DNA from: G963667145 sp963676515 [NCBI: Candidatus Cloacimonadota bacterium]
Lineage (GTDB): Bacteria; Cloacimonadota; Cloacimonadia; G963667145
Length of the DNA stretch: 64,000 nucleotides
Assembly (NCBI GenBank): GCA_963676515.1
Contig: OY781061.1
Location: 1,302,001 to 1,366,000 of the forward strand
Reading direction: 5' to 3'
Shown here piece after piece: positions 42,601-63,410 of the stretch. A program made the translations under genes and the position numbers. Position 1 is the stretch's first letter. Each line of letters begins with the position of its first letter. Below the pieces are notes generated by a model. It was not told the DNA's origin and searched no databases. It was given only the letters and a program-made list of their open reading frames with translations.

Positions 42601-42723
42601 TATCTGGACGATTTAAAGAAGGAAACTTTGGCGGATAGCTTCCAGAGAGCGGAATCTAGCCACGGGATGACCAAGTGGTTAGTGAACGGTTTGGAGATTT
42701 ATCTGCAAGTAGAGAAAGTTTGA
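39616..42723 (+). CDS. ileS: isoleucyl-tRNA synthetase (eukaryote-like, type 2)
   Basis: A 1035-residue class Ia synthetase. The HIGH-equivalent motif is G-P-P-T-A-N-G-K-P-G-I-H-H-V (about residues 45-58). The editing domain covers about 190-390, with Cys pairs C-P-K-C-G before it and C-W-R-C and C-P-K-C-G after. W-F-D-S-G-A-M-P and K-M-S-K-S-K-G-N (near 596) complete the active site. The C-terminal part lacks the zinc finger of E. coli-type IleRS, and the motif forms are those of the type 2 group, which is often insensitive to mupirocin. AAGGAGG (39601-39607) precedes the ATG. Confidence 0.95.
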   Translation: MYKTIDPKKKSANIEAEVAKKWDKIDILGKSSSKGNQEFIFFEGPPTANGKPGIHHVMARSIKDTVCRYKTMQGFCVKRKAGWDTHGLPVEIEVQKQLGLDDRKKILDYGVEQFNQKCRDSVFSYEKLWRKMTQQMGYEIDLDNPYITLDNDYIESVWWLLNQIWKKGLLYQGHKVVPFCPKCGTPLSSHEVAQGYKEVSESSVYIKFRKKGEANTYFLAWTTTPWTMAGNVALVVGAKIDYVKVEVGGEFYILAKNLLSVLDEDYKVVEEFKGQELLGQEYEPLFTVEKLQNENSHKIYAGDFVTTEDGTGIVHTAGMYGEDDYQVCKKHNIPLVHTVGEDGKYNENFPMLQGLFVKDKEVEKQIIIALKEKGLFMKKENFKHTYPFCWRCDSPLLYYARMSWYIKTTDYKDKMIEENKKVNWVPPFVGEGRFGSWLENNTDWAISRDRFWGTPLNVWICDDCACEESIGSKADLRSKGSIAGGGAVGANPELHKPFVDEIVLKCPKCGGVMHRVPQVIDCWFDSGAMPFAQHHYPFENKENFDKLYPADFICEGIDQTRGWFYSLLAISTIIKGQSPYKNVLVNDLILDKKGKKMSKSKGNTVNPFDVMDEYGADAVRWYLLAGSPPWVPTKFDPSGVKEVAGKFFGTLKNVYSFFATYANIDGYSVEESREVTSSIDRWVFSKLNGLIAFVQERMDAYDLTKAVRAIQNFVCEELSNWYVRRSRERFWSFELSDDKKDAYYTLHTVLVAITKMVSPVSPFLVDHIYGVLTGEDSVHLAAFPMSDPKRIDPELETKMDTVIQVVSLGRFARNNASLKVRQPLAEIKLPKRLQAVIAGMEELILEEINIKNISFVDDDFVSYSAKVNFKSVGKKVGKQMKALQDYLLRADVESIKGAFERGEDYSVQLDGAEFRLEKDDLLFELNALDGYQVEAGGEFFVALSTDLSDELIAEGYARELINKIQFTRKNSGYEVMDRINVSYYYSEDLATKLAGYLDDLKKETLADSFQRAESSHGMTKWLVNGLEIYLQVEKV

Positions 42724-49069: not shown

Positions 49070-50003
49070 TTTGTGGCAGTACGAGAAGGTGGGCATCTTT
49101 ACCCATATGGATCCAGATGCCGATGCTTTGGGCTCGTGTTTTGCTTTGCAGATGGCTTTGGGCAAAAAAAGAGCGAGTGTGGTGTTGGAAGCTCAACCCA
49201 GAGATTCTCTCTTTGATGAGTTTGGTGCTGTGTCGTTGCAGGCGACTGAGGCAGAGTATGATGCTGTGGTGGTGCTGGACGCTCACGAAAAGGGGAGATT
49301 GGGTAAATGGGAAAAGTTTGTGGGGGATTTCAAAAAAGATATATTTGTAGTGGATCATCATCAAATCGGGAATGAGAAGTTACTCACAAAATGCGAAATA
49401 ATCGACCCTACGGCTGTCAGCACAGGAGTTTTGATTTTCAATATGTGCCAGAGGCTTGCAGATGGTTGGAGCGATGCCCAGCGGGTGAAATTTGCCCGAG
49501 CGGTTTATTACACAATCCTTGGCGATACAGACGGATTCCAAAATCGCAATCTGAATGCGGAGTGCTTTGCGGTGTGCTCGACTTTGCTAGATTGGGGTTT
49601 AGAGCCAGCCAAAGCTTACGAAGATTTTTTTTGCAAGATGAAGCTGCGGGAGTTTGCTTATTTGGCGGAAGTTTACAAAAGTGCTCAAGAGTATGAAAAA
49701 GGCAAAATTGTGTTTGCTTTCAGTGGCTTGGATTTGCAGGAAAAGCTCGGATTTGCTTACGACGAGTTACCGTCTGTCATTGGCAGACTTAAACAACTGA
49801 AAAACTATGAGATTATTGTCGTTTTCAAAGAGAAAGAAAGAAATTTATACAAACTCAGTTTTCGCTCCAAGTCGGCAGATGTGCGAGCTATCTGTGCCAA
49901 TTACGGGGGAGGTGGACATTTGCTGGCGGCTGGATGCCAGATACGCGGAGAGCGAGAGGAAATAGAGAAGGAAGTGCTGGATATATGCAAGAAGAAGCTT
50001 TAA
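49056..50003 (+). CDS. nrnA: NrnA-type DHH phosphoesterase (nanoRNase / pAp phosphatase)
   Basis: A 315-residue manganese phosphoesterase. Motif I is T-H-M-D-P-D-A-D-A-L-G-S, motif II V-V-L-D-A-H-E, motif III V-V-D-H-H-Q and motif IV G-D-T-D-G-F. The C-terminal DHHA1 domain ends with G-G-G-G-H-L-L-A-A-G. NrnA degrades short RNAs and pAp. The gene overlaps tsaC upstream and truB downstream (19 bases). In other bacteria nrnA, truB and ribF are neighbours, as here. Confidence 0.92.
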   Translation: MLLDSLWQYEKVGIFTHMDPDADALGSCFALQMALGKKRASVVLEAQPRDSLFDEFGAVSLQATEAEYDAVVVLDAHEKGRLGKWEKFVGDFKKDIFVVDHHQIGNEKLLTKCEIIDPTAVSTGVLIFNMCQRLADGWSDAQRVKFARAVYYTILGDTDGFQNRNLNAECFAVCSTLLDWGLEPAKAYEDFFCKMKLREFAYLAEVYKSAQEYEKGKIVFAFSGLDLQEKLGFAYDELPSVIGRLKQLKNYEIIVVFKEKERNLYKLSFRSKSADVRAICANYGGGGHLLAAGCQIRGEREEIEKEVLDICKKKL

Positions 50004-50845
50004 ACGGAGTGCTCTTGGTGGATAAGCCCGCAGGGATTAGTTCTTTCGGGGTGATATCTCAGATAAGACGGATTTTGGGCATCAAGAGAGTAGGGCACTG
50101 TGGCACTTTGGACAACTTTGCCACTGGCGTGCTAGTGGTGATGCTGGGCAAAGCGACTCGACTGGCGAGATTTGTGTCGGTGCAAGATAAATGTTACAAG
50201 GCAAAGATTGTTTTTGGGCAGAAGACAGATACGGCGGACATCACAGGGGAAGTGATAGGAACAAGCGGTTTACCTAGTGAGTTGGATGCAAACCTGCGGA
50301 CGAAGGTTTTGGACATTACATCGCAAGTACCACCGATATACTCGGCGATCAAGGTGGACGGCAAGAGGGCTTACGCTCTAGCTCGCAAAGGTGATGTGCC
50401 ACAGATGAAGCCGCGGGCGATGGAGGTTCTGGATTTCGAAGTGGACTCTTTTGATTGTGAGAGCCTTTGTTACACGGCGAAGGTGTCCAAGGGGACATAC
50501 ATCAGGACGCTTAGCGAGGATATCAGCGAGCTTTTGGGAGTAGTGGGCACTACCGAGTCTCTTTGCAGACAAGAGTGTGCAGGATTTCGCCTAGAGGAAT
50601 GCGTGAGAGTAGAGCCGAATATGGACAGAGATTTTTTGCTGAGCAAGGTGCTTTCTCCCGATGTATTGCTAAAAGATTTGCCTGCTATAGAGCTAGATGA
50701 GAGCAAGTATAGCAAGTTTATTTGCGGTAACTCTTTTGGCGAAGAAAGAGGCAAAAATGGCTTTACAAAAATTTACCACTGCGGAGTGTTGGTGGGTGTA
50801 GCGTGGGTGGAGCAAGGCGAAATAAGACCGAAAATAGTGTTTTAG
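49985..50845 (+). CDS. truB: tRNA pseudouridine-55 synthase
   Basis: A 286-residue enzyme making psi55 in the T loop. L-V-D-K-P-A-G-I-S-S-F near the N terminus, the catalytic Asp in G-H-C-G-T-L-D-N-F-A-T-G-V-L, P-P-I-Y-S-A-I-K-V-D-G-K-R-A-Y and G-T-Y-I-R-T-L are all present. A PUA-like C-terminal segment follows. The ATG at 49985 starts the family domain; the frame is open 51 bases further up inside nrnA. The ribF fusion starts 14 bases downstream. Confidence 0.95.
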   Translation: MQEEALNGVLLVDKPAGISSFGVISQIRRILGIKRVGHCGTLDNFATGVLVVMLGKATRLARFVSVQDKCYKAKIVFGQKTDTADITGEVIGTSGLPSELDANLRTKVLDITSQVPPIYSAIKVDGKRAYALARKGDVPQMKPRAMEVLDFEVDSFDCESLCYTAKVSKGTYIRTLSEDISELLGVVGTTESLCRQECAGFRLEECVRVEPNMDRDFLLSKVLSPDVLLKDLPAIELDESKYSKFICGNSFGEERGKNGFTKIYHCGVLVGVAWVEQGEIRPKIVF

Positions 50846-50859
50846 ATGGGATTTAATTT

Positions 50860-53214
50860 ATGAGAAGATGGATAAAGTTTTTTATTGTAATTTTATTTTT
50901 GCAAGGTACCTTGTGGTCGGCAGCCCAAAATTTGCCTGTAAGCAGTAAATTTGACAGTGAAACCAAAAGAACTGCTTGGTGGAATCGGCAGGAGTATCAG
51001 TGGAAAGTAGCTTTCAATAAACTTTTGGGAAAAGGTAAAACGACCAAAAAGCCCAAAGATGAAGCTTTGCATCGCTTGCTGGGAAGAACCACACTTTTTT
51101 TGTATGGATATGAGCTTACCGACATCAGCGGATTGTCTGAGCTAGATCATCTGGAAAATGTAAACTGTTCTTACAACAAGATATCTAGCATAAAAGGTAT
51201 AGAAAATCTGGTAAACTTGAAAGAGCTAAAGTTAAGTGATAACCGCATAACATCTTTAAGGCGAATCAAGAATCTCAAAAAATTGGAGTATCTGCGTGCC
51301 GACTTCAACGATTTGCACGATCTCAAAGGACTGGAGAACCTAAGCAATCTTAAAAGGGTTTATGTGAAGAGGAACTTTCTCTCGTCCATAGAGCCTTTGG
51401 CGGATAAACCTCTTCTGGAGGAGCTGTCGATTAGCTATAACAAAATCACCTCTTTGCAACCACTAAAGACAAGCCCCAAGTTGAAGATTTTGCTGGTGCA
51501 ACACAATTCTCTAAGTAATATCGAAGGTTTAGAAGGGTTGCTAGAGTTGGAGCGAGTGTTTATTTTCAAAAATCGGCTCACCAATCTGGAGGGCGTGCAA
51601 AAGTTAAAAAAACTAAAAGTTTTTATGTTCTCACAGGAGAGTAAGATTTTGCCTGAGGTGGAAAAAGAGAAGGTAAGGCGATTTTTTGCACGGAAAAAAG
51701 CTTTTAAATTTGGCTTTGGTGGTGGATTGTTGGTGCTATTTTGTTTGGGGTTTTTTGGCTATATCTTGGTAAAAATAAGCATAAAGATGAAAAGACGCAA
51801 AGAACGGAAAAAAGAGTTTTTGCGGTTACGGAAGCTTTTTGCTAACCAAAAAGCTTCATTTTTTGACAATAAAAATCTTCTTTATCAATGGTGGAATAAT
51901 CTAGAAGATCAGTGGAAGCGGATTTTTAATGTGCAGCTGGATAATGGAAGCTCGCTCTTTTTCCCTAAAGAGTATGAGCTGCGAGATTTGCTAAATAGCC
52001 GATTTTTTAGGATGCGAGGCGACAATTTGACTAATCTTTCGGGGCTAAAAAATTGCACTAAATTGGAAAGGCTGAGTTTTTATAACGAGAGTCCAAAATT
52101 TTTAAAGCTGTTTTCTGATTTGAATTTTTTGGCGAGATTTGCTAACTTGAAAAGAGTGGAGTTTTCCACTAGCGAAGTGAGAAAGATTAAAGATTTTGCG
52201 AAGCTAGAGAAAATGTTTGAGATTGTAACGCCGTTGAGTGAGATTCCTTATACTCCTGAGGGTAGCATTATTGATATCTCGGACGATACGCAGGTGCGGT
52301 ACAAATATCCGATAGTGGCGATTGGCAATTTTGAGGGGTTGCACCTGGGGCACGCCAAGATACTCAATCGCCTCTATGCTAGGGCTGAAGACACAGGTGG
52401 AGAGGCTTTAGTGCTGACTTACAGAGTACACACGCGGGAGCACTTTCTCAAGAAAGCGAATAAGCCGATAGAGCCCTATATGATTTTGGAGAAGGAGCAC
52501 AAAGAAAATATGTTGTTTCATAAGTTTGGGGTGCATTCGATTTTGTATTTGGATTTTGAGAAAGAGGTGGTAAACCTCTCGGCGGAAGATTTTTTTAAGA
52601 AGATTTTGCTTGAAAAGTTGCATATCAGGGAGATAGTTTGCGGACACGACACAAGATTTGGGAAGGACAGAACGGGCGACTATAGGCTTTTGGTGGAGCT
52701 ATCTAAGCCTTATGGGATTAAGGTTCGCTTGGTAGAGCCATTGATGATGGGTGATGAGATAGTGTGTAGTCGGCTGATAAGAGAGAAGATAAAGCAAGGA
52801 GAGGTTAATAGTCTCAAGCGTTATCTATCGAGGAATTACTCGATAGTGGGTACGGTAGCACAGGGGCGAAAGATAGGAGGGAAGCTAGGTTTCCCGACTC
52901 TGAACCTAACACCCAAAGAGCCGTGTAAACTTTATCCTGCACAAGGGGTGTATATAACGCATACCAAGATCGGCAATAAGGGCTACTATGGTTTGACCAA
53001 TATTGGTTTTGCTCCGACTATCAGGGAAGATCTCAGCGAGAAAACGATAGAGAATTACTTGTACAAGTTTAGCAAATCTATTTATGGACAAGAGGTAAAG
53101 ATAGTGTTTTTGCAGTATTTACGGGAGGAGAAGAAGTTTGCTTCGCGTGACGAGTTGGTGCAGCAGATGAAAAAAGATTTGAAATTGCTCAGGCAATATA
53201 TAAGGGTGCATTAG
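50860..53214 (+). CDS. ribF: membrane-anchored leucine-rich-repeat protein fused to RibF (riboflavin kinase/FAD synthetase)
   Basis: A single 784-residue frame. Residues 5-20 form a signal-like helix, with a possible cleavage site near W-S-A-A-Q. Residues 38-53 carry a W-W-N...Q-W-K...F-N motif, and 78-257 hold about eight internalin-like 22-residue leucine-rich repeats. Residues 285-308 are a transmembrane helix followed by K-R-R-K-E-R-K-K, placing the rest in the cytoplasm. A second W-W-N...Q-W-K...F-N motif (343-357) with degenerate repeats follows. RibF begins near 483: G-N-F-E-G-L-H-L-G-H (adenylyltransferase), G-H-D-T-R-F-G-K-D-R-T-G-D, C-S-R-L-I-R, then the kinase G-K-L-G-F-P-T-L-N-L, L-T-N-I-G-F-A-P-T and I-E-N-Y-L-Y-K-F. 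Ordinary RibF has about 310 residues and no membrane part. Bifunctional FMN/FAD synthesis is likely retained. The role of the sensor-like half is unknown. Confidence 0.88.
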   Translation: MRRWIKFFIVILFLQGTLWSAAQNLPVSSKFDSETKRTAWWNRQEYQWKVAFNKLLGKGKTTKKPKDEALHRLLGRTTLFLYGYELTDISGLSELDHLENVNCSYNKISSIKGIENLVNLKELKLSDNRITSLRRIKNLKKLEYLRADFNDLHDLKGLENLSNLKRVYVKRNFLSSIEPLADKPLLEELSISYNKITSLQPLKTSPKLKILLVQHNSLSNIEGLEGLLELERVFIFKNRLTNLEGVQKLKKLKVFMFSQESKILPEVEKEKVRRFFARKKAFKFGFGGGLLVLFCLGFFGYILVKISIKMKRRKERKKEFLRLRKLFANQKASFFDNKNLLYQWWNNLEDQWKRIFNVQLDNGSSLFFPKEYELRDLLNSRFFRMRGDNLTNLSGLKNCTKLERLSFYNESPKFLKLFSDLNFLARFANLKRVEFSTSEVRKIKDFAKLEKMFEIVTPLSEIPYTPEGSIIDISDDTQVRYKYPIVAIGNFEGLHLGHAKILNRLYARAEDTGGEALVLTYRVHTREHFLKKANKPIEPYMILEKEHKENMLFHKFGVHSILYLDFEKEVVNLSAEDFFKKILLEKLHIREIVCGHDTRFGKDRTGDYRLLVELSKPYGIKVRLVEPLMMGDEIVCSRLIREKIKQGEVNSLKRYLSRNYSIVGTVAQGRKIGGKLGFPTLNLTPKEPCKLYPAQGVYITHTKIGNKGYYGLTNIGFAPTIREDLSEKTIENYLYKFSKSIYGQEVKIVFLQYLREEKKFASRDELVQQMKKDLKLLRQYIRVH

Positions 53215-53580
53215 ATGAAAGTAAAAGAAATGTTGAAGTTGGTCGATGGTAAGTTGCTGAGTGCAGAGGGACATCTGGAATACGATGTGTTTTTTGGAGT
53301 AGCATCAGATCTTATTAGCGATATTTTGATGTGTGTGAAAGATCCAGCAGTGCTTTTCACTGGGCTTATCAATCATCAGATTATCCGTGTAGCTGAGATG
53401 GTAGATATGCAGGCTATCGTTTTTGTGCGAGGAAAAAAGCCAAATAAGGAAATGTTGCTATTGGCAAAGGAACACGATTTGCCTGTTTTATGCACAAACT
53501 TGTCTTTGTATGAGGCTTGTGCTTTGGCGTATCAGGGTGGATTGCAGCCGCTAGCTATAAAGATTAGTATTGATGAATAG
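53215..53580 (+). CDS. stand-alone DRTGG-domain protein
   Basis: A 121-residue protein that is almost entirely a DRTGG domain: V-K-E-M-L-K-L-V-D-G-K-L-L-S, then V-F-F-G-V-A-S-D-L-I-S-D-I-L-M and L-F-T-G-L-I-N. The domain occurs in regulatory proteins and next to CBS domains; ligand and function are not established. The same domain is found at the C terminus of the hydrogenase-like protein two genes downstream, to which it is clearly similar. Its ATG directly follows the ribF-fusion stop, and it overlaps the next gene by 8 bases. Confidence 0.85.
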   Translation: MKVKEMLKLVDGKLLSAEGHLEYDVFFGVASDLISDILMCVKDPAVLFTGLINHQIIRVAEMVDMQAIVFVRGKKPNKEMLLLAKEHDLPVLCTNLSLYEACALAYQGGLQPLAIKISIDE

Positions 53581-54052
53581 TTTTGCCTATAGTAAAGATG
53601 CGGAAGTAGATCCTGAGCAATTTTTGGCTGAACTGGGGCAACCTGCGATAAATTTTGAATTTACCATCAAAGCCAAAGATTTCGTGGAGTCTGGCAAAGC
53701 TACCACTAAGGTGAAAAAATATCTCAAGGTTTTGGGAATAGACGCAGGTTCTCTGCGACGCTTTGCTGTGGCGAGCTACGAGGCGGAGATCAATGTGGTG
53801 GCACACTCCAAAGGTGGCAAGATGATGACAGGGATTTACCCAGAGTTTGTGCATCTGAAGTTTATAGACCAAGGTCCCGGGATAGAAGATGTAGACAAGG
53901 CGATGAAGCCTGGCTATTCCACGGCGGACGAATTGGCTCGTTCGATGGGATTTGGTGCAGGGATGGGATTGCCCAATATCAAAGATAATGTGGACATCAT
54001 GAGACTCAGCTCCGAGCAGAATACGGAGATGGATTTGGTGGTGTTTTTTTGA
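53573..54052 (+). CDS. HATPase_c anti-sigma-factor-like ATP-binding protein
   Basis: A 159-residue protein with a GHKL ATPase fold. The N box reads A-V-A-S-Y-E-A-E-I-N-V-V-A-H-S, the G1 box F-I-D-Q-G-P-G-I-E-D, and the G2-like region G-F-G-A-G-M-G-L-P-N-I-K. Without a receiver or dimerisation domain it resembles RsbW/SpoIIAB-type serine kinases, which bind or phosphorylate partner proteins. Similar genes accompany [FeFe]-hydrogenase loci of anaerobes. ATG at 53573. Confidence 0.85.
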   Translation: MNSFAYSKDAEVDPEQFLAELGQPAINFEFTIKAKDFVESGKATTKVKKYLKVLGIDAGSLRRFAVASYEAEINVVAHSKGGKMMTGIYPEFVHLKFIDQGPGIEDVDKAMKPGYSTADELARSMGFGAGMGLPNIKDNVDIMRLSSEQNTEMDLVVFF

Positions 54053-54054
54053 TA

Positions 54055-55677
54055 ATGAAAGATGAAAAAATGATAAGTAAAGGTTCTGTTCAAGAGAACA
54101 AAGAAAAGTGTATCGGATGCACAAGATGTGTGCGAGTTTGCCCTGTGTCTGCTATCAGGCTCAGAGATGGGAAAGTGGAGCGTTATACTCAAAAGTGCAT
54201 CAGCTGTGGGCAGTGTATCAAGATTTGCCCCGTGGGTGCTATTCAGAGCGTTTACGACGACTTTGATCAGCTTTTGCAAGATTCCCGATTTAAGTATCGG
54301 GTGGCACTTTTGTCAAATGTGTTTATCGGGCAACTCCCTCAGAAGGTAGATTATAAGATGGCGATGGACGCCCTTTTGCAGCTAGGATTCGATAAAGTGA
54401 TAGATGAAAATATGATTACTGGGGTGATGGCTCCGATTTTTGCCAAAAAGTTAAACGAAGCAAAAATAAGACCTTTAATCTCATCTAATTGTCCAGCGAT
54501 AGTGCGATTGATCCGCATCAAATATCCATCTTTGTTACCTCATATCTTGCCCTTAGAGAGTTCTGTGGGGATACTCAGTACATATTACCGACATTATCTA
54601 GCTAAGCAAAAGGGATGTAATCTGGAAGAGATCGGCATTTTTTTTATTGCACCTTGTTCTGCTCAAATCACCGCACAAAAAAATCCTGTGGGAAGAGAAG
54701 TGGCTTCTTTAGATGGTGCTTTGGCGATGAAAGATGTTTACAATCGGGTAATGAATGTTTGCTATAATCAGAAGCAAGAGGATAAGAAAGAGGAGCAAGA
54801 GAATAAAAGCAAAAAACGCCATGAGAATTGGGGTATCTATGTTGCCGAAGGGAATCAAATAAAAAAGAGCAACTTTAAAACTTTGGCGGTCAGTGGGTTC
54901 AAGGGGACAAAAGATATTTTGACCAAGATTGAAGGTGGACAGCTGGATTTTTACGATTATGTGGTGTTGCGGAGTTGCACGAATGGATGCGTGGGTGGAG
55001 ATCTGAATGTCGAAAATCCTTTTATCGCTTCCAATAGGATGGCTTCGTCAGATATTGAATTTGAAAAGATAGATAAGGAACTTTTTTATAAACTTTTTGA
55101 GCAAGGGGAGTTTGGATTGCAAGAAGATTTGACCCCCGTAGATTATGGAGTAGAGACCTTGTCGATGCAAGAAAAGATAGTAAAGATGAAAAAATATAAA
55201 GATATCCAAAAACTTTTGCCCGGGAAAGATTGTGGAATATGTGGCTGTCCGACTTGTGCAGATTTGGCGAAGGAGATAGTGGATGGCAAGGCAAAATTTT
55301 CCGATTGCGTATTTAATATGCAGGAGCAGAAGAAAGTCTCATTGCCTAGGATCATAGAGTCTATCGGTGGCAAACTGCTGACGGATGAGAAAAACTTGTC
55401 AGGTGTCGAGGTTAGCAGCGTTTATGCGGGAGATTTGCTCTCGGATGTGATGGCGTCTGCAGGTGATAGCCAGGTGTGGGTGACGATAATGCAACATCAG
55501 AATACGATAGCTGTGGCGTCACTCTTGGAGATAGAGGCGGTAATCTTCGCCAAAGATAAGATGCCGGAGCAAAAATTGATAGAGAAAGCGAATGAAGAGG
55601 GGATCGTGCTGATTAGTAGCTCTCTTTCTTCTTTCCAGATTTCGGGGATGCTGTATAAGATGGTGGTGGTCAGATAG
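54055..55677 (+). CDS. hydrogenase-like iron-sulfur sensor with C-terminal DRTGG domain
   Basis: A 540-residue protein. An N-terminal pair of [4Fe-4S] motifs (C-I-G-C-T-R-C-V-R-V-C-P and C-I-S-C-G-Q-C-I-K-I-C-P, residues about 19-60) is followed by an [FeFe]-hydrogenase large-subunit-like domain (about 80-350), a Cys-rich Fes-type motif C-G-I-C-G-C-P-T-C near 402, and a DRTGG domain (about 430-540). The three H-cluster loops deviate. L1 is S-S-N-C-P-A-I instead of T-S-C-x-P-x-W, L2 A-P-C-S-A-Q instead of M-P-C-x-x-K, and L3 R-S-C-T-N-G-C-V-G-G-D. It is therefore more likely a sensor or regulatory protein than a fast hydrogenase. It has weak start signals, and I chose the ATG at 54055. Confidence 0.87.
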   Translation: MKDEKMISKGSVQENKEKCIGCTRCVRVCPVSAIRLRDGKVERYTQKCISCGQCIKICPVGAIQSVYDDFDQLLQDSRFKYRVALLSNVFIGQLPQKVDYKMAMDALLQLGFDKVIDENMITGVMAPIFAKKLNEAKIRPLISSNCPAIVRLIRIKYPSLLPHILPLESSVGILSTYYRHYLAKQKGCNLEEIGIFFIAPCSAQITAQKNPVGREVASLDGALAMKDVYNRVMNVCYNQKQEDKKEEQENKSKKRHENWGIYVAEGNQIKKSNFKTLAVSGFKGTKDILTKIEGGQLDFYDYVVLRSCTNGCVGGDLNVENPFIASNRMASSDIEFEKIDKELFYKLFEQGEFGLQEDLTPVDYGVETLSMQEKIVKMKKYKDIQKLLPGKDCGICGCPTCADLAKEIVDGKAKFSDCVFNMQEQKKVSLPRIIESIGGKLLTDEKNLSGVEVSSVYAGDLLSDVMASAGDSQVWVTIMQHQNTIAVASLLEIEAVIFAKDKMPEQKLIEKANEEGIVLISSSLSSFQISGMLYKMVVVR

Positions 55678-56391
55678 ATGAGGTGTAAAGCCGATTTGCA
55701 TATGCACTCTGTTTTGTCTCCTTGTGGGAGTTACTCTATGTCGCCCTCGCTTTTGTTTGAGAAAGCTGTGCAAAATGGCTACAAGATGCTTTCTATTACC
55801 GAGCATAATAGCCTGGCGAATTCATCGGCTTACGCGAGCATTGCCCAAAAGTTCGGTATCCATTTTATCTATGGTGTGGAGATTCAGACCGATTTGGAGG
55901 TGCATATTTTGGCTTATTTGCCCGATAAAGATGCGGCACAAGCTTTTGACAAAGAGCTCTACCAGAGTTTGCCAGAGATACAGAATAAGAAAAATTTTTT
56001 TGGCGATCAGGTGCTGATAACGGAAAATGAAATGGTGCTCGGGTTTGAGAATAGACTTTTGCTCAATTCCGTCTCTTGGGATTTGCAAACGACTTTCGCT
56101 AAGGTGAAAAGTTATGGCGGACTGCTCGTGGCGTCGCATGTTGACGCCGATAGTTTTAGTATTAGCTCTCAGCTGGGGTTTTTGCCCGAAGATTTATTGT
56201 TTGATGCTCTAGAGGTGGTGGGCGATACAGCTCCTTGGGAAAAATATGGTTTGCCTTTGGTCAAGAATTCCGATGCTCATTACTTAAAAGATTTTGGCAA
56301 AAGGTATACGGAGTACCAGATGGATGAGATTGGATTTGCAGGTTTGAAAAACGCTTTGCAAGAAAAAAGATTTGAAATAAAAAGTAGCTAA
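55678..56391 (+). CDS. PHP-domain phosphoesterase-like protein
   Basis: A 237-residue protein of the polymerase-and-histidinol-phosphatase fold. Metal-binding motifs are visible: D-L-H-M-H-S near the N terminus, T-E-H-N near 41, Glu in G-V-E-I-Q, S-H-V-D near 154 and S-D-A-H near 200. The substrate is unknown. PHP genes are frequent neighbours of hydrogenase-like sensor genes in anaerobes. The ATG directly follows the preceding stop codon. Confidence 0.88.
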   Translation: MRCKADLHMHSVLSPCGSYSMSPSLLFEKAVQNGYKMLSITEHNSLANSSAYASIAQKFGIHFIYGVEIQTDLEVHILAYLPDKDAAQAFDKELYQSLPEIQNKKNFFGDQVLITENEMVLGFENRLLLNSVSWDLQTTFAKVKSYGGLLVASHVDADSFSISSQLGFLPEDLLFDALEVVGDTAPWEKYGLPLVKNSDAHYLKDFGKRYTEYQMDEIGFAGLKNALQEKRFEIKSS

Positions 56392-56403
56392 AGAGGGGGA
56401 GAA

Positions 56404-56874
56404 GTGGAAAAATGTAAAAACGCACTTTACGATGAGCTGAAAAAAATAATTCAGGCGAAGTCTGAGTTGAAAGATCCTTTGATTGAGATTTTGAGAGAGG
56501 CTCAAGAGCTGTTTGGTTATTTGCCGGAAGAGGTGCAAATATTTGTCGCTGAGCAGATGAATTTGCCAGTAAACAAAATTTATGGGGTGGTAACTTTTTA
56601 CAATTTTTTCTCGATGAAGCCTCGCGGGAAATTTGTGGTCAATGTCTGCACGGGGACAGCTTGCTATGTGAAAGGTGCGGGTAAGGTGATAGAGATGATA
56701 GAGCAGGAGCTGGGCATCCATTTGGGGCAGACCAGCGAAGATGGGAAGTTCACGCTTTCGTCTGTGCGGTGTGTGGGAGCTTGTTCTTTGGCACCAGTGG
56801 TGGTGGTAGGTGAAGACACTTATGGCAAGGTTGCCAGCAGAGCACAAGTCAAAGAGATTTTGGATAAGTATTAG
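56404..56874 (+). CDS. hydC: NuoE/HydC-like [2Fe-2S] subunit, first copy
   Basis: A 156-residue thioredoxin-like ferredoxin subunit of NAD(H)-linked hydrogenases. Four cluster cysteines are present as C-T-G-T-A-C and C-V-G-A-C. The N-terminal helices contain I-L-R-E-A-Q-E-L-F-G-Y-L-P, and I-Y-G-V-V-T-F-Y-N-F-F is the standard NuoE element. GTG start at 56404 with GGGGGAG just upstream. It probably relays electrons between HydB flavin and HydA. A second copy lies at 59679. Confidence 0.9.
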   Translation: MEKCKNALYDELKKIIQAKSELKDPLIEILREAQELFGYLPEEVQIFVAEQMNLPVNKIYGVVTFYNFFSMKPRGKFVVNVCTGTACYVKGAGKVIEMIEQELGIHLGQTSEDGKFTLSSVRCVGACSLAPVVVVGEDTYGKVASRAQVKEILDKY

Positions 56875-56917
56875 TCAGAGTAGAGAAAAGCAAAAATTAA
56901 CGGGAGAGCTAGAGGTT

Positions 56918-57463
56918 ATGCAAGATATTTCTTTACATCTATTGGACATTCTGCAAAATTCGGTGAGTGCGGGAGCTTCGTTGATAGTTTGTCGATTTGT
57001 CAAATCTGCAGATATTTTGCGATTGTCGATAGAGGACGATGGCAAAGGAATGGACGAAGATACTTTGCAGGCTGCTCTGGATCCTTTTTACACTAGCAAG
57101 GTGCATCGCAAGAAAAAAGTCGGCTTGGGCATTCCGCTTTTTGCCCAGAGTGCCAAACTTTCGGGCGGATTTTTTGATATGGAGTCCACTCCTGGTAAAG
57201 GTACGAAGCTGGAGGCAAGTTTTGTCCTCTCGAGCATAGATGTTTTGCCACTGGGCGATATCACTGCGACGATGATTAATTGCGTTGTTGCTCATCCTGA
57301 GGTAGATTTTGTATTGGAGAGTGTAGTGTCAGGGGAAGAAGAGTGTTTTGATACTCGTCTGATTAAAAAGGAGCTAGATGGTGTGCCTTTGGATCAGCCT
57401 GAGATAAGAGTTTTTATAGAAGAGATGCTTAACCAGCAGATTGTAAAATTGGAGGAAAAATGA
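56918..57463 (+). CDS. HATPase_c histidine-kinase-like ATP-binding protein
   Basis: A 181-residue protein: L-H-L-L-D-I-L-Q-N-S-V-S-A-G-A (N box), I-E-D-D-G-K-G-M-D (G1 box), D-P-F-Y-T-S-K (F box) and K-V-G-L-G-I-P-L-F (G2 box). It lacks a His-phosphotransfer domain. A C-terminal extension of about 60 residues has no domain I can name. Similar genes sit between NuoE and NuoF genes of hydrogenase loci in anaerobes. The ATG at 56918 was chosen because the family domain begins there; the frame is open back to 56810 inside hydC. It overlaps the next gene by 4 bases. Confidence 0.83.
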   Translation: MQDISLHLLDILQNSVSAGASLIVCRFVKSADILRLSIEDDGKGMDEDTLQAALDPFYTSKVHRKKKVGLGIPLFAQSAKLSGGFFDMESTPGKGTKLEASFVLSSIDVLPLGDITATMINCVVAHPEVDFVLESVVSGEEECFDTRLIKKELDGVPLDQPEIRVFIEEMLNQQIVKLEEK

Positions 57464-57813
57464 AGTCGTTAGCTGATTTGAAAAAATTAAAAGAAGAAGT
57501 TCAAAAAAAGATGAACTTGAGGAATTCGGATTACAAATATAAAATCGTAGTGGGTATGGGTACTTCTGGTATCGCCATGGGAGCCAGAGAGGTGATGCGG
57601 GCTTTTTTGGATGAGATATCCAAACGAGATGTCGCTGGAGTGATAGTAACCCAGAGTGGAGAGAAAGGTGCCTCTAGTATGGAGCCTGTGGTGGATGTGT
57701 TAGAGAAGGATGGCAAGGTTGTGACTTATTGCCAAATGAGTGCCGAGAAAGCGAAAAGAGTGGTCAGCGAACATATTGTGAATGGAAATGTTATTAGTGA
57801 ATATTTGATTTAG
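57460..57813 (+). CDS. HndB-like thioredoxin-fold protein lacking cluster cysteines
   Basis: A 117-residue homologue of the NADP-reducing hydrogenase subunit HndB: S-L-A-D-L-K-K-L-K-E-E-V-Q-K-K-M-N-L-R, then G-M-G-T-S-G-I-A-M-G-A-R-E-V, E-P-V-V-D-V and I-V-N-G-N-V-I-S-E-Y. In the cluster-binding form I know, G-T-C and T-G-C-I-G-x-C occupy the positions that here read G-T-S and S-G-E-K-G-A-S. The only Cys (V-T-Y-C) is elsewhere. A [2Fe-2S] cluster is therefore not expected. It may be a structural or regulatory subunit. AAATG overlap with the preceding gene. Confidence 0.8.
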   Translation: MKSLADLKKLKEEVQKKMNLRNSDYKYKIVVGMGTSGIAMGAREVMRAFLDEISKRDVAGVIVTQSGEKGASSMEPVVDVLEKDGKVVTYCQMSAEKAKRVVSEHIVNGNVISEYLI

Positions 57814-57822
57814 AAGGTTAGT

Positions 57823-59646
57823 ATGTTAAAAAGAATTGATGTTTTACTGTGTTTTGGCTCAGGGTGTGTGTCTGCTGGAGCCAAAAAGATTAAGGAAGAG
57901 CTTCAAAATCAGGTAAAAGCGTACGATATAGATAGCGAAGTGAATATTATAGAGACGGGCTGTATGGGACCTTGCGATCAAGGACCATTGATGCTTGTTT
58001 ATCCAGAAGGTGTTTTTTACAAGCAACTTAAACCAGAAGATATGAAAGAGGTGGTAGAGGAGCATTTTGTGAAAGGCAGGGTCGTGGAGCGTCTTTTGAT
58101 GAGAGATGAGTCCGTGGCTGCGAAAGCTATTCGTAATGTGGAAGATGTGCCTTTTTACCAAAATCAGACCAAGATAGCTCTTAAGCATTGCGGATATTTA
58201 GATCCAGAATCTCTGGAGGAGTATGTGGCTGTCGATGGCTACTCTGCTTTGGGTAAAGTGCTTGAGCAGATGTCGCCTGATGATGTGATCAAGCAGATAC
58301 AGGTCTCTGGACTGCGAGGTAGAGGTGGTGGCGGATTCCCGACGCATCTCAAGTGGAAGTTCGCTAAAGCAGCCAAAAGCGATGATGGTAAGAAGTACAT
58401 GATTTGTAACGGCGACGAGGGAGATCCAGGAGCTTTTATGGATAGGTCTTTGCTCGAGGGCGATCCTCATAAGGTTTTGGAAGGAATGATGATAGCTGCA
58501 TATGCAGTGGGAGCTTGTGAGGGTTTCTTTTACATCAGAGCGGAGTATCCTTTGGCTATCCAGCGGATAAAGTTGGCTATCGAGAACGCTAAAGAGTATG
58601 GGCTTCTTGGCGATAATATTTTGGGAAGCGACTTTTGTTTCGATGTGGAGGTGCGTACTGGTGCGGGAGCTTTTGTGTGTGGAGAGGAGACAGCGTTGAT
58701 CTCGTCCATCGAGGGCAAGAGAGGTCATCCGAAACCTAAGCCTCCGTTCCCTGCGAACAAAGGACTCTGGGGTAAGCCGACCAATATTAACAATGTGGAA
58801 ACTTTTGCTAATGTTCCACCGATTATCTTAAAAGGTGGTGAGTGGTTTGCCTCGATGGGCACACAGAAGAGCAAAGGCACAAAGGTTTTTGCTCTTACTG
58901 GCGATGTGAAGAACACTGGGTTGGTGGAAGTGCCGATGGGCATCACTATTGGTGAGTTGATAGGCAAAGTGGGTGGTGGAATGAGTTCTGGGCAGTTCAA
59001 AGCTGTGCAGCTGGGTGGACCGTCTGGCGGTTGCCTGACCAAGCAGCATTGGGATGTGCCCATAGATTACGATTCGCTCATCGCCGAAGGTGCTATGATG
59101 GGCTCTGGCGGTGTGATAGTGATGAACCACGAGAAATGTATGGTTAATGTGGCTAAATTTTTCTTGGAGTTCTCTTTGGAAGAGTCTTGTGGTAAGTGCT
59201 CGCCTTGCCGTGTGGGACTCAAGCATATGCACAATATTTTGGAGAAGATTACCGCTGGCAAGGGGACTATGGAAGATATTACTGAGCTGGAGAAAATAGG
59301 CTCTGTGGTCAAGAAAACTTCGCTGTGTGGATTGGGGCAGACCGCTCCTAATCCTGTGCTTTCTACGCTGAAATATTTCCGCAACGAATACGAAGAGCAT
59401 ATCAAAGAAAAAAAGTGCTCATCTTTGGTTTGTGCAGATCTTTTGCATTTCGAGATTAACAAAGATAAATGCGTGGGCTGCTCGCTCTGTGCGAAAAAGT
59501 GCCCAACTGGTTGTATAGAAGGCTCTAAAAAAGAAAAATTCACTATATTGCAGGGTGAATGTGTGAAGTGTGGAAACTGTTTGGAAGTTTGTCCTGTGGG
59601 TGCTGTGGCGAAGTTGCCGGGAATATTGTCGGAAGATGAAGAATAG
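57823..59646 (+). CDS. hydB: NuoF/HydB-like flavin and iron-sulfur subunit, full version
   Basis: A 607-residue subunit. The N-terminal thioredoxin-like [2Fe-2S] domain has four Cys (C-F-G-S-G-C and T-G-C-M-G-P-C). The NuoF core has G-R-G-G-G-G-F-P-T (NADH/FMN-binding), N-G-D-E-G-D-P-G-A, G-A-G-A-F-V-C-G-E-E-T-A-L and the [4Fe-4S] set E-S-C-G-K-C-S-P-C-R plus L-C-G-L-G-Q. A C-terminal ferredoxin has two [4Fe-4S] motifs (C-V-G-C-S-L-C-A-K-K-C-P and C-V-K-C-G-N-C-L-E-V-C-P). This is the HydB/HndC architecture of trimeric electron-bifurcating hydrogenases. Confidence 0.94.
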   Translation: MLKRIDVLLCFGSGCVSAGAKKIKEELQNQVKAYDIDSEVNIIETGCMGPCDQGPLMLVYPEGVFYKQLKPEDMKEVVEEHFVKGRVVERLLMRDESVAAKAIRNVEDVPFYQNQTKIALKHCGYLDPESLEEYVAVDGYSALGKVLEQMSPDDVIKQIQVSGLRGRGGGGFPTHLKWKFAKAAKSDDGKKYMICNGDEGDPGAFMDRSLLEGDPHKVLEGMMIAAYAVGACEGFFYIRAEYPLAIQRIKLAIENAKEYGLLGDNILGSDFCFDVEVRTGAGAFVCGEETALISSIEGKRGHPKPKPPFPANKGLWGKPTNINNVETFANVPPIILKGGEWFASMGTQKSKGTKVFALTGDVKNTGLVEVPMGITIGELIGKVGGGMSSGQFKAVQLGGPSGGCLTKQHWDVPIDYDSLIAEGAMMGSGGVIVMNHEKCMVNVAKFFLEFSLEESCGKCSPCRVGLKHMHNILEKITAGKGTMEDITELEKIGSVVKKTSLCGLGQTAPNPVLSTLKYFRNEYEEHIKEKKCSSLVCADLLHFEINKDKCVGCSLCAKKCPTGCIEGSKKEKFTILQGECVKCGNCLEVCPVGAVAKLPGILSEDEE

Positions 59647-59678
59647 ATTTGAAGTTGTATAATTAAAAGGAGGTTGTG

Positions 59679-60116
59679 TTGACTAATTTTGAGAAATATC
59701 TACCAAAACCAGAAAATATTTTGCAGTTGTTGCATTTGGCACAAGATGCCAATCCTTTGCAATATTTGAGCAAAGATGCTCTGATGGAGGTGGCAGAATT
59801 TTTGAAGATGCCTTATAATCAGGTTTATTCTGTGGCGAGTTTTTACTCGATGTTTTCTTTGAAACTTAGAGGTAAATTTGTAATCAAGGTTTGTCTGTCG
59901 CCACATTGCGTGGTGCAAGGGTCGGATAACCTTTTTGATTATTTGAAAAAAGCGACTAAAAAAATGGATGAAGTCAGCCTGGAGGCTTGTCAGTGCTTGG
60001 GTGTGTGTGGTAACGCTCCTGTGGTGCTGGTGAATGACAAGGTTTATGGCAATATGACCCAAGAGAAATTAGCAGGGCTAGTGCAAAATCTCAAGGAGGG
60101 TGAAAATGTTTTATAG
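59679..60116 (+). CDS. NuoE/HydC-like [2Fe-2S] subunit, second copy
   Basis: A 145-residue paralogue of the subunit at 56404 with the four cysteines C-L-S-P-H-C and C-L-G-V-C in place. Q-V-Y-S-V-A-S-F-Y-S-M-F corresponds to the NuoE helix. The TTG at 59679 is favoured: AAGGAGG (59667-59673) gives a spacing of 5. A GTG three bases earlier is too close. It is followed by its own NuoF partner, overlapping by 11 bases. Confidence 0.9.
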   Translation: MTNFEKYLPKPENILQLLHLAQDANPLQYLSKDALMEVAEFLKMPYNQVYSVASFYSMFSLKLRGKFVIKVCLSPHCVVQGSDNLFDYLKKATKKMDEVSLEACQCLGVCGNAPVVLVNDKVYGNMTQEKLAGLVQNLKEGENVL

Positions 60117-61671
60117 ATCGCATCTTCTTTTTGTGGTGGACGATCACTCTCTGGGCAAGGGCGTAAAAAAAGTGATAAAAGCTATTCGGGATGAGTTGGC
60201 GAAAAACGGCCTAGACAATGAGGTGGGCGTGCTGGAGACGGGTACTTTGGGTTACATTTCCAAAGGTGTGCATTTCATCGTCTATCCCGACAATCTTCTG
60301 TATCACGATGTTACGGTGGAGGATGTCCCTTTTATCGTGCTAGAGCATTTCCTAAAAGGGCGACCTGTGAAAAAGCTGTGCCAAGAGGCGAAGCAAGAGG
60401 TCGATTTGGCTTATTCTCAGCGGATCGTGCTAAAAAATTCAGGCAAGATAGACCCAGAGTCTATCGATGAGTATATAGCTGTGGATGGTTATCAGTCTTT
60501 GGGTAAAGCTTTGCAGATGGGCAAAGAGGCTGTATTGCAAGAGATAAAAACTTCTAATCTGCGTGGTCGTGGAGGTGCGGGATTCCCCACGGGAGTCAAG
60601 CTGGAGATGACGGCGAAGCAAGAAGAGAAGCAAAAATATATTGTGGTGAACGCCGACGAGGGCGAAGCGGGGACTTTCAAAGACCGCTTGATAATGGAAG
60701 GAGATCCGCATAAGCTACTGGAAGGGATGACGATAGCGGCTTTTGTAGCAGGTGCGGATACAGGCTACATCTATATCAGGGGCGAGTATCAACTTTGCAT
60801 TAGCAGGCTGGAGAAAGCTATCAAGCAAGCCAAAGAGTACGGACTGCTAGGGAAAGACATTTTTGGTAGCGGTTTCGATTTTGAGGTGATGGTGAAAGTT
60901 GGGGCAGGTGCTTACATTTGTGGAGAAGAGACGGCACTGCTGAACTCTCTGGAAGGTGGCAGAGGTAATCCTCGCTGCAAACCGCCTTACCCAGGGGTGA
61001 GTGGACTCTGGGGGAAGCCGACGGTGGTAAACAATGTGGAGACCCTTTCCAATTTGCCAGCTATCATCGAAAAAGGTGGAGAGTGGTTTGCAAGTATTGG
61101 CACTCCCAAATCTTGTGGCACTAAGGTGTACACCATCTTGGGAGATGTGAACAATCCTGGTTTGATCGAAGTGCCTATGGGGACGACTTTGTCGGAGATT
61201 ATTTTCAAATATGGCGGAGGACTCAAAGAGGGTGAACAGTTCAAGGCAGCACTAGTGGGAGGTGCTGCGGGGATGTTTTTGCCCAAAGAGCTTCTTCAGA
61301 TTAAGCTCGATTTTGAAAATCTGTCCAAAGAGTCGGCTGTGCTTGGCTCGGGAGCTATCTTGATTTTGAGCGAGCGGACAAATATGCTTAAAGTTTTGCG
61401 TTCGATTTTGAACTTCTTCTTGCATGAGTCTTGCGGGAAGTGTAGCCCTTGCCGAATAGGGTGTAAGGTGCTAGTAAATATAGTAGATAAGATAGTCGCT
61501 GGTCAAGCTGATGCGAGCGATGTGCAGAGGCTTTTGAGTGTGTCTAAAGTGATGCAAAAGACGGCTTTTTGTGCTTTGGGTCAATCTCCGATTATGCCGA
61601 TAGCTAGTATGGTTAAGTATTTTGGAGATGAAATTGAAAAGTTTATAGGAGAGGAGAGAAAATGCAAATAG
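60106..61671 (+). CDS. NuoF/HydB-like flavin subunit, reduced second copy
   Basis: A 521-residue paralogue of the 57823 gene. The N-terminal thioredoxin-like domain persists but all four cluster cysteines are gone (V-D-D-H-S-L-G-K-G and E-T-G-T-L-G-Y-I-S). The NuoF core is intact: G-R-G-G-A-G-F-P-T, N-A-D-E-G-E-A-G-T-F-K-D, G-A-G-A-Y-I-C-G-E-E-T-A-L, E-S-C-G-K-C-S-P-C-R and F-C-A-L-G-Q. The C-terminal two-cluster ferredoxin is missing. It should still bind FMN, NAD(P)H and one [4Fe-4S] cluster. The ATG at 60106 follows AAGGAGGG by 5 bases. It overlaps hydA by 10. Confidence 0.9.
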   Translation: MFYRSHLLFVVDDHSLGKGVKKVIKAIRDELAKNGLDNEVGVLETGTLGYISKGVHFIVYPDNLLYHDVTVEDVPFIVLEHFLKGRPVKKLCQEAKQEVDLAYSQRIVLKNSGKIDPESIDEYIAVDGYQSLGKALQMGKEAVLQEIKTSNLRGRGGAGFPTGVKLEMTAKQEEKQKYIVVNADEGEAGTFKDRLIMEGDPHKLLEGMTIAAFVAGADTGYIYIRGEYQLCISRLEKAIKQAKEYGLLGKDIFGSGFDFEVMVKVGAGAYICGEETALLNSLEGGRGNPRCKPPYPGVSGLWGKPTVVNNVETLSNLPAIIEKGGEWFASIGTPKSCGTKVYTILGDVNNPGLIEVPMGTTLSEIIFKYGGGLKEGEQFKAALVGGAAGMFLPKELLQIKLDFENLSKESAVLGSGAILILSERTNMLKVLRSILNFFLHESCGKCSPCRIGCKVLVNIVDKIVAGQADASDVQRLLSVSKVMQKTAFCALGQSPIMPIASMVKYFGDEIEKFIGEERKCK

Positions 61672-63410
61672 TAGTTAATGGAAAAAAGCTAGAAGCTAAA
61701 GCGGGTCAGACGATAATGGAAGCTACTCGCGAGGGCGATATTTACATTCCTAGCTTGTGCTATCACAAAGATTTGACACCTACTGGTAATTGCGGAGTGT
61801 GCGTGGTGCAGATAGAAGGCATGGCCGCTTTGAAAAGAGCGTGTGTGACTCCAGTGGAAGAGGGAATGTCGATCATTACCGATTCGCCAGATATCAGGAA
61901 ACTTCGTAAAGAGCTTTTGTCCTTGATATTGCTGGATCACGATGTGAAATGCCCGACTTGCGACCAAAACGGAAAGTGCGAATTGCAAGAGCTGATAAAC
62001 TATATGGACATCTCAGAGTCGGAGTACGAGCCGATATTTACCAAAGCCAAGGTGGACAATCTGAGCGATTCTATCGTGAAAGATACGACTAAGTGTATTC
62101 ATTGTGGGCGTTGTATCACGGTGTGCAACGACATCCAAAAGGTGCACGCTCTTTGCGTAGAAGGCAGAGGGTTTGAGAGCAAGATAACGACTGCTTTCGA
62201 CTCTTCGCTCGTGGATAGCCCTTGTGTCAACTGCGGGCAATGCACGGTCTATTGCCCAGTGGGAGCACTCAAAGAGAAAACGGAGATAGAGGAAGTGCAA
62301 AAGGCTCTCTTCGACCCGAGTAAAATAGTGGTAGTGCAGGAAGCTCCATCTGTGAGGACGGCACTGGGAGAAGAGTTTGGGATGGATGCCACCAAAGTTA
62401 CCGTGGGCAAGATGTACGCCGCTTTGCGTAAGCTCGGTTTTGATAGAGTGTTCGACACGAACTTTGCTGCGGATTTGACGATAATGGAAGAGGGCTCGGA
62501 GCTCATCCAGAGGATAAAAGAAGGCGGAACTTTGCCCCTAATTACCTCTTGTTCTCCAGGTTGGGTGAAATTTGTGGAGACTTATTTTCCCGATTTTCTG
62601 CCCAATGTTTCCAGTTGCAAATCGCCGCAACAGATGTTCGGAGCGATGGTCAAGACCTATTTTGCCAAGCAGGAGGGTATCGACCCCAAAGATATTGTCA
62701 GCGTTTCTATTATGCCGTGCACAGCCAAGAAATTTGAAGCCAAGCGACCAGAGATGAACTCCTCGGGCTATCAGGATGTTGATTGCGTGCTGACTGTTAG
62801 AGAGTTCATCAAGATGATTAAAGGTGCTAAGATAGATTTCAAAAATTTGCCAGAAGGGAGAGCTGACCAGCTGATGGGGCAATATTCGGGAGCAGGCACG
62901 ATTTTCGGAGCGACAGGTGGAGTGATGGAAGCTGCTATCCGTACGGCGTACGCTATCCTTGCTGGCAAGGAGCTAGACAACCTGAATGTGGAAGCGGTGC
63001 GTGGGATGCAAGGCATCAAGGAAGCGAGCTTGGACATCCCCTTGAAGGACAGCTCGACGGTCTTGAAGGTCAATGTCGCCGTAGCACACGGGCTGGGCAA
63101 TGCGAAGAGGCTATTGGAAGATGTAAGAGCGGGTAAGAGGTCTTACCACTTCATCGAGATAATGGCGTGCCCAGGAGGCTGCGTGGGCGGTGGTGGACAG
63201 CCGTATGGCTCAGACATCGCCGATCGTGCCAGAAGGGGCGAGTCTCTTTACAAAGAGGATAGTAAGTGCGAATACAGGGCTTCTCACACCAATCCGATGA
63301 TTAAGAAAATATATGCTGAGTTCTTGGGCGAACCGCTCTCACACAAGTCGCACCAGTACCTGCACACTAGCTACAAGCCAAGAAACAAGGTGACAGGCAA
63401 GCAAGATTAG
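61662..63410 (+). CDS. hydA: [FeFe]-hydrogenase catalytic subunit HydA (M3 type)
   Basis: A 582-residue group A hydrogenase. The N-terminal [2Fe-2S] domain uses C33, C44, C47 and C61. The His-Cys3 [4Fe-4S] site is H93, C97, C100, C106. Two [4Fe-4S] motifs follow (C-I-H-C-G-R-C-I-T-V-C and C-V-N-C-G-Q-C-T-V-Y-C-P). The H-cluster loops are complete: L1 T-S-C-S-P-G-W (295-301), L2 M-P-C-T-A-K-K (351-357), L3 E-I-M-A-C-P-G-G-C-V-G-G-G-G-Q-P (499-514). With HydB/HydC-type subunits it should couple H2 to NAD(P)H and ferredoxin, directionality unknown. Maturases HydE, HydF and HydG must be encoded elsewhere. It is last in the operon, before a terminator. Confidence 0.97.
   Translation: MQIVVNGKKLEAKAGQTIMEATREGDIYIPSLCYHKDLTPTGNCGVCVVQIEGMAALKRACVTPVEEGMSIITDSPDIRKLRKELLSLILLDHDVKCPTCDQNGKCELQELINYMDISESEYEPIFTKAKVDNLSDSIVKDTTKCIHCGRCITVCNDIQKVHALCVEGRGFESKITTAFDSSLVDSPCVNCGQCTVYCPVGALKEKTEIEEVQKALFDPSKIVVVQEAPSVRTALGEEFGMDATKVTVGKMYAALRKLGFDRVFDTNFAADLTIMEEGSELIQRIKEGGTLPLITSCSPGWVKFVETYFPDFLPNVSSCKSPQQMFGAMVKTYFAKQEGIDPKDIVSVSIMPCTAKKFEAKRPEMNSSGYQDVDCVLTVREFIKMIKGAKIDFKNLPEGRADQLMGQYSGAGTIFGATGGVMEAAIRTAYAILAGKELDNLNVEAVRGMQGIKEASLDIPLKDSSTVLKVNVAVAHGLGNAKRLLEDVRAGKRSYHFIEIMACPGGCVGGGGQPYGSDIADRARRGESLYKEDSKCEYRASHTNPMIKKIYAEFLGEPLSHKSHQYLHTSYKPRNKVTGKQD

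What the first reader, a model, noticed from the sequence alone, without database searches (positions are those of the whole stretch)
50860..53214. A RibF enzyme tethered to the membrane behind an extracytoplasmic leucine-rich-repeat domain
One unbroken frame joins a signal-like segment, about eight internalin-like repeats, a transmembrane helix with a strongly basic cytoplasmic flank, and a complete RibF domain (from about base 52306). The topology is self-consistent: repeats outside, FMN/FAD synthesis inside. RibF is normally soluble, and I know no described case of such a fusion. It lies between truB (the normal ribF neighbour) and a flavin-rich hydrogenase locus. This suggests either surface-signal control of flavin synthesis or supply of FMN/FAD at the membrane for export or flavoprotein assembly. 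The topology is read from the sequence; the role is inference.
Basis: partly seen in the sequence, partly recalled or inferred. Interest (0 to 1): 0.82.

Follow-up and report, generated by a model that had tools for sequence, protein, structure and literature searches.

The report
Leucine-rich-repeat membrane protein fused to RibF
One uninterrupted bacterial gene joins a predicted membrane protein carrying two leucine-rich-repeat domains to the cell's own flavin-cofactor enzyme RibF, an arrangement not seen in the related genomes checked; it may anchor vitamin B2 processing at the membrane, but it rests on a single DNA record.

Summary
Bases 50860-53214 are one 784-codon frame: signal-like segment, eight leucine-rich repeats, a transmembrane segment, complete RibF. 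The ORF frame scores best in all 25 coding-bias windows, and the starts nearest RibF (52213-52315) have ribosome sites no better than chance. New points: (1) between membrane segment and RibF lies a second, decayed copy of the capped repeat module, so the same module flanks the membrane segment on both sides. (2) The RibF half is the lineage's own ribF: behind truB, as in relatives, and inside its unnamed phylum in a tree. (3) Its kinase half keeps 18 of 18 columns conserved at 94% or more; the adenylyltransferase half loses 2 of 18 (GxFDG has E, H-P has T) and has R where 53 of 53 others have S or T. No LRR-RibF frame appears among 109 RibF rows from 124 genomes of the phylum, nor 141 from 150 others. 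Most likely a real, lineage-specific fusion tethering RibF to the inner membrane; an assembly error joining two genes cannot be excluded. Surface sensing is unsupported; in a diderm 'outside' means periplasm.

The parts
49988..50845 (+). truB, normal upstream neighbour of ribF in the phylum
   Evidence: blastp to truB of relatives, 33-44% identity
50860..53214 (+). LRR-TM-LRR-RibF fusion gene, 784 aa
   Evidence: single open frame, best coding log-odds in 25 of 25 windows
50860..50925 (+). signal-like segment, residues 1-22
   Evidence: hydropathy peak 4-22 after MRRWIK; cleavage after SAA read by eye
50977..51081 (+). LRR cap 1 (WWNRQEYQWK..., residues 40-74)
   Evidence: homologous to cap 2: score 77; 1000 shuffles mean 22.7, SD 4.5, max 45
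51094..51669 (+). LRR domain 1, eight 22-residue repeats plus a partial one (residues 79-270)
   Evidence: Pfam LRR_4, NCBIfam and PDB phmmer matches; repeats counted by eye
51709..51783 (+). predicted transmembrane segment, residues 284-308, basic flanks on both sides
   Evidence: hydropathy peak 2.37 at 290-308
51889..52257 (+). cap 2 and decayed LRR domain 2 (residues 344-466), cytoplasmic side if topology holds
   Evidence: residues 332-440 align with 28-130: score 128; 500 shuffles mean 28.9, SD 5.1, max 54; LRR-like reading from 441 to about 466 is by eye
52312..52773 (+). FMN adenylyltransferase (FAD_syn) module with E492, T525, C636, R638
   Evidence: Pfam; column counts
52825..53199 (+). 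riboflavin kinase module, columns conserved at 94% or more all kept
   Evidence: Pfam
53215..63410 (+). downstream hydrogenase-type locus starting on the base after the ribF stop (DRTGG protein, 4Fe-4S/HydA-like protein, PHP, NuoE/NuoF/HydA-like)
   Evidence: ORFs; Pfam for the DRTGG and HydA-like proteins; the other names are by eye

Best explanation
A genuine, lineage-specific gene fusion. A gene for a secreted or membrane protein built of two capped leucine-rich-repeat modules around one transmembrane helix came to lie between truB and ribF, and ran into the cell's own ribF in frame. The product is an inner-membrane protein with repeat module 1 in the periplasm and repeat module 2 plus RibF in the cytoplasm. 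It is the organism's flavin enzyme: it makes FMN with its intact kinase half at the membrane, and FAD with an altered, perhaps weaker, adenylyltransferase half. The repeats most likely act as protein-binding scaffolds that place FMN/FAD production next to a membrane partner. Shown: one frame, domain content, duplication of the repeat module, place and kinship of ribF, residue changes. Inferred: topology, expression as one protein, enzyme activities, scaffold role, and that it is the only RibF of the cell.
For: Single frame, best coding log-odds in 25 of 25 windows. Starts nearest RibF have anti-SD energies at chance level: ATG 52213 -1.7, TTG 52234 -2.7, GTG 52294 -3.2, GTG 52315 -3.1; random median -2.9; median of 34 gene starts of the window -6.2. 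At the place where relatives' RibFs begin, about 18 residues before GTFDG (by eye), this protein has Ile 471. RibF groups inside the phylum (30 rows 99/98; subgroup of 19 rows 99/91), the same side as InfB (60-62% vs 52-54%), and follows truB. Kinase half: 0 of 18 columns conserved at 94% or more changed. RibF joins neighbouring genes elsewhere: TruB-RibF in G418 of the same phylum, RibF-cytidylate kinase in G190.
Against: One record only: no LRR fusion among 109 listed RibF rows from 124 genomes of the phylum (my count; two of the frames, in G423 and G444, are cut by a contig start) or 141 of 150 others. The TM-LRR2 stretch has no homologue better than E 3e-4, and that one runs through 7 stop codons. 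The fusion's own start has only a weak ribosome site (-4.0), while some in-frame starts further upstream of RibF are better (TTG 52027 -6.3, GTG 52177 -5.9). Both TM flanks are basic. The two cap-type LRR proteins found among fetched loci have no hydrophobic segment. RibF is a long row (1.51), whose place the tree tool calls unsure, and by plain identity it is slightly nearer to the other side of the phylum (44-47% to L128-L131, 40-44% to L132, L133, L137, L138). Structure models were too poor to use.
Confidence: 0.55

Rival explanations
1. Artefact: the LRR gene and ribF are separate genes, and a base error or indel in the assembly removed the stop or shifted the frame between them.
For: No relative listed has the fusion. 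The other two frames close within tens of bases of the junction (stops at 52226, 52235, 52239, 52257), so one lost or gained base could fuse two genes. The junction stretch is too short for coding bias to settle. No genome is held to check.
Against: LRR-like sequence seems to run in frame up to about residue 466 (by eye) and relatives' RibFs would begin at about 471, leaving little room for an intergenic ribosome site; the starts nearest RibF have sites at chance level. I did not check the rest of the window for broken frames.
Confidence: 0.25
2. Read-through accident: the fusion is real DNA but the repeats are neutral or decaying baggage; RibF works as a soluble or proteolytically released enzyme, or from an internal start.
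For: LRR domain 2 is irregular (by eye); the RibF branch is long (1.51 against a median of 0.51); the fusion is in no other genome listed; in-frame starts with fair ribosome sites exist in the LRR2 part (TTG 52027 -6.3, GTG 52177 -5.9).
Against: LRR domain 1 is regular, and 784 codons are open. The long branch is not special to RibF: truB and nrnA of the window are similarly distant.
Confidence: 0.15
3. Sensor: binding of a periplasmic ligand or partner to LRR domain 1 regulates FMN/FAD synthesis across the membrane.
For: Predicted topology, with homologous modules on both sides of the membrane segment.
Against: No relative of the N-terminal part in which a conserved ligand site could be seen; a single TM helix and a housekeeping enzyme make simple on/off control unlikely (inference); no direct evidence at all.
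Confidence: 0.05

Closest known systems
Bifunctional riboflavin kinase/FAD synthetase RibF (TIGR00083; PDB 1mrz, 2x0k)
   Same: Both modules, HxGH, PTxN, catalytic Glu, position behind truB
   Different: N-terminal LRR-membrane part of about 470 residues; GxFEG for GxFDG; CSR for SS[S/T]; H-T for H-P
TruB-RibF (G418) and RibF-cytidylate kinase (G190) single frames found here
   Same: RibF joined in frame to a neighbouring gene
   Different: Partners are soluble housekeeping enzymes, not a membrane LRR protein
Higher-plant FAD synthetase fused to an inactivated FAD pyrophosphatase (PMC9678776; search listing with start of abstract only)
   Same: A flavin-cofactor enzyme joined to another domain
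   Different: Plant enzyme with a different partner; nothing on LRR or membranes in what I saw
22-residue LRR class of internalins and of the 5il7 'Rab family protein'
   Same: Repeat class
   Different: Internalin models far below cut-off; a WWN-type cap, of which two further cases were found in the fetched loci (L127, L159)

Membership tests
RibF, bifunctional FAD synthetase | Whole-domain family models above curated cut-off | tested here: met
   TIGR00083 197.7/184.35, NF004162 248/241, FAD_syn 123.1/27, Flavokinase 124.4/19.6; the other RibF-subfamily models (NF004158-61, NF004163) are below their cut-offs
RibF, bifunctional FAD synthetase | HxGH and G-x-[D/N] of the adenylyltransferase | tested here: met
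   H495, G497, H498, G595, D597
RibF, bifunctional FAD synthetase | GxFDG and SS[T/S]xxR consensus (PMC2573891, passages) | tested here: not met
   E492 (D in 53 of 53 others) and C636-S637-R638 (S or T at 638 in 53 of 53; S at 636 in 47 of 53)
RibF, bifunctional FAD synthetase | Kinase motifs PTxN, GxxPT, catalytic Glu, R, D | tested here: met
   P679 T680 N682, G716 P719 T720, E731, R755, D773; 0 of 18 columns at 94% or more changed; departures at less conserved columns S657, K736, M770
RibF, bifunctional FAD synthetase | Riboflavin kinase and FMN adenylyltransferase activity | not testable with these tools
   needs enzyme assay
Internalin | NCBIfam internalin models above cut-off | tested here: not met
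   InlA 77.3/1600, InlH 65.6/1050
Type I inner-membrane protein | Cleaved signal peptide, one stop-transfer helix, positive inside | tested here: inconclusive
   Two hydropathy peaks, but both flanks of the TM are basic; no SignalP/TMHMM available

The most novel reading that the evidence does not exclude
RibF has become an integral inner-membrane enzyme: homologous LRR modules on both faces dock a periplasmic and a cytosolic partner, so that FMN (kinase intact, adenylyltransferase modified) is made where a membrane flavoprotein or hydrogenase complex is assembled or where flavin is handed to the periplasm.
Probability: 0.15. Interest if true: 0.8.

Novelty: new variant of a known kind. Interest (0 to 1): 0.47.

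Why it matters
RibF is usually taken as a free, soluble housekeeping enzyme (recalled). A membrane-tethered RibF would show that cofactor synthesis can be placed where flavoproteins are built, and would give a natural construct for testing flavin channelling at the membrane. The altered adenylyltransferase motifs beside an intact kinase make a concrete, assayable prediction about the balance of FMN and FAD.

Tried and rejected
Second ribF elsewhere in the same genome: not testable, no genome is held. Close relatives of the fusion: genome contigs, 48 pattern matches, none confirmed; viral contigs, 14, none; plasmids, 116 records, none covering 80% of the query. IleS as anchor gave mostly Clostridia, and InfB on 40 chosen genomes no close one (best 48%), so PyrG was used to walk to the right phylum. 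Long RibF open frames in G348, G211, G071, G108, G095, G141 and G178 were fetched; their loci are GC-rich (0.62-0.73) and the stretch upstream of RibF looks low-complexity, so I take it as read-through. Other frames of about 400-475 aa (G293, G224, G339, G195, G205) were not fetched. RibF-specific acceleration: rejected, because truB and nrnA diverge alike. 'Dead adenylyltransferase': not claimed, since other RibFs also carry 2-3 departures in that half (L090, L100, L134). Foreign origin of the LRR part from its composition: GC 0.38 against 0.44 in the ribF part, not decisive. AlphaFold2 on window protein alone gave mean pLDDT 50.9 and 31.9, so no fold search was run. Paper searches, judged from their listings, show no LRR-RibF or membrane-anchored RibF; most subscription papers are outside the library. 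Phylum name: no tool names it; 'Cloacimonadota' is my guess.

Full report
What is there. Bases 50860-53214 form one frame of 784 codons, 14 bases after the truB stop. Pfam finds leucine-rich repeats, FAD_syn (485-638) and Flavokinase (656-780); two NCBIfam RibF models pass their cut-offs. Solved RibF structures align over both modules (1mrz, E 1e-34). The repeats are of the 22-residue class; the best solved match is 5il7, ahead of internalin A. Hydropathy gives two segments, 4-22 and 290-308.

Is the fusion more than a mechanical ORF? Codon log-odds, trained on the other window genes that I listed, are highest in the ORF frame in 25 of 25 windows of 60 codons, with no switch at the junction; the ORF frame's own values are modest (-0.01 to 0.25), and stop codons weigh against the other frames. 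Genes in this window do use ribosome sites: of 34 starts (picked by me, the fusion's own included) 20 reach -6 or lower, against 19% of 2000 random sites; median -6.2 against -2.9. The in-frame starts nearest RibF do not: ATG 52213 -1.7, TTG 52234 -2.7, GTG 52294 -3.2, GTG 52315 -3.1. Further upstream, inside LRR domain 2, TTG 52027 (-6.3) and GTG 52177 (-5.9) are fair, and GTG 52411 inside FAD_syn has -7.0. RibF proteins of relatives begin about 18 residues before GTFDG (read by eye), where this protein has Ile 471. So an independent ribF start is not supported, though not excluded. The fusion's own start is weak too (-4.0).

The missed second module. Residues 28-130 and 332-440 align (Smith-Waterman 128; 500 shuffles mean 28.9, SD 5.1, max 54), and the cap alone (residues 40-74 and 344-378) scores 77 against a maximum of 45 in 1000 shuffles. 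The protein is therefore signal / cap-LRR1 / TM / cap-LRR2 / RibF. LRR2 is short and irregular. A pattern search over the loci then held from L081 on found this cap beside repeats in two other frames, L127 and L159, neither with a hydrophobic segment. Three LRR proteins of the phylum with an N-terminal hydrophobic segment (L162, L163, L166) have a different N-terminal part.

Topology. If RibF is cytosolic, as its need for ATP implies, and the TM crosses once, LRR1 must lie outside. Charge does not decide: 9 K/R in the 22 residues before the TM, 11 in the 24 after. A relative carries a TonB-dependent receptor, so this is probably a diderm and 'outside' is most simply the periplasm.

Where it comes from. 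No whole genome is held. There, 115 of 124 genomes match the query and 109 have a listed RibF row (my count; the list is cut off below about 5e-12). 108 frames are 142-391 aa, two of them cut by a contig start (G423, G444); one, G418, is 575 aa, a TruB-RibF joined frame. None is long enough, or of the make-up, to carry the LRR part. Of 17 ribF loci fetched from the phylum, 11 read nrnA-truB-ribF, three have a frame of about 810 aa between truB and ribF (the L128 copy is a TonB receptor by Pfam), one shows no truB, one is the TruB-RibF frame, one ends before nrnA. In 150 further genomes 141 had a RibF match and no LRR fusion; the longest frame, 556 aa, has a stop inside its aligned stretch. One search (58 of 59 genomes with a match) showed none; (275 of 290) printed only its best rows and showed none among them. 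In the RibF tree of 54 rows the window lies with the phylum (30 rows, 99/98) and in a subgroup of 19 that includes G406, G414, G407 and G418 (99/91), on a long branch of 1.51, for which the tool warns that the place is unsure. By plain identity RibF is slightly nearer the other side (44-47% to L128-L131 against 40-44% to L132, L133, L137, L138). InfB agrees with the tree: 60-62% to that side, 52-54% to the other. The long branch is not RibF-specific: truB (33-43%) and nrnA (28-32%) of the window are likewise far from L132, L133, L137 and L138, which share 48-57% and 44-48% among themselves, and 51-64% in RibF.

Enzyme residues. Against 53 other RibFs (29 of the phylum, 24 not; second copies of the same loci left out), the kinase half keeps 18 of 18 columns that are at least 94% conserved; the adenylyltransferase half loses 2 of 18 (D492E, P525T) and also has R638 where 53 of 53 have S or T. 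At columns conserved at 80-93% it further departs at I542, L543, H559 and C636, and the kinase half at S657, K736 and M770. R638 corresponds to T165 of the Corynebacterium enzyme (motif, alignment); there T165A lowers and T165D abolishes FAD formation while kinase activity is largely kept (PMC3509593, passages). The consensus motifs are given in PMC2573891 (passages). Among the 53 others, three carry 2-3 departures in the adenylyltransferase half (L090, L100, L134), so I call the module altered, not dead.

Known or not. Four literature searches, judged from their listings, show no LRR-RibF or membrane-anchored RibF; one on extracytosolic flavinylation gave background only. The library omits most subscription papers.

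Verdict. The most likely reading is a real, lineage-specific fusion that would tether the cell's RibF to the inner membrane. The single record leaves about a one-in-four chance of an artefact. Sensing or export is unsupported.

Noticed in passing
L157:402-1982 (G190): One 527-aa frame joins complete RibF to complete cytidylate kinase in a low-GC genome.
   Followed up: partly
L158:1428-3152 (G418): One 575-aa frame joins TruB_N to RibF in the window's own phylum.
   Followed up: partly
L128:5845-8265, L129:2162-4591, L130:5680-8115: A frame of about 810 aa lies between truB and ribF in three related genomes, so this spot accepts insertions; Pfam names the L128 copy a TonB-dependent receptor.
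   Followed up: partly
window 39616-42723: IleS has its best full-length genome contigs matches in Clostridia/Tissierellia (about 53%; 60% over part of the protein in L069) although InfB and PyrG place the genome in another phylum; possible horizontal transfer, or relatives missed by the pattern search.
   Followed up: no
window 53215-63410: Hydrogenase-type locus with a DRTGG protein and a 4Fe-4S/HydA-like protein starts on the base after the ribF stop.
   Followed up: no
window 5092-6705: A transposase-like ORF (identified by eye) lies in the window, upstream of nusA-infB.
   Followed up: no
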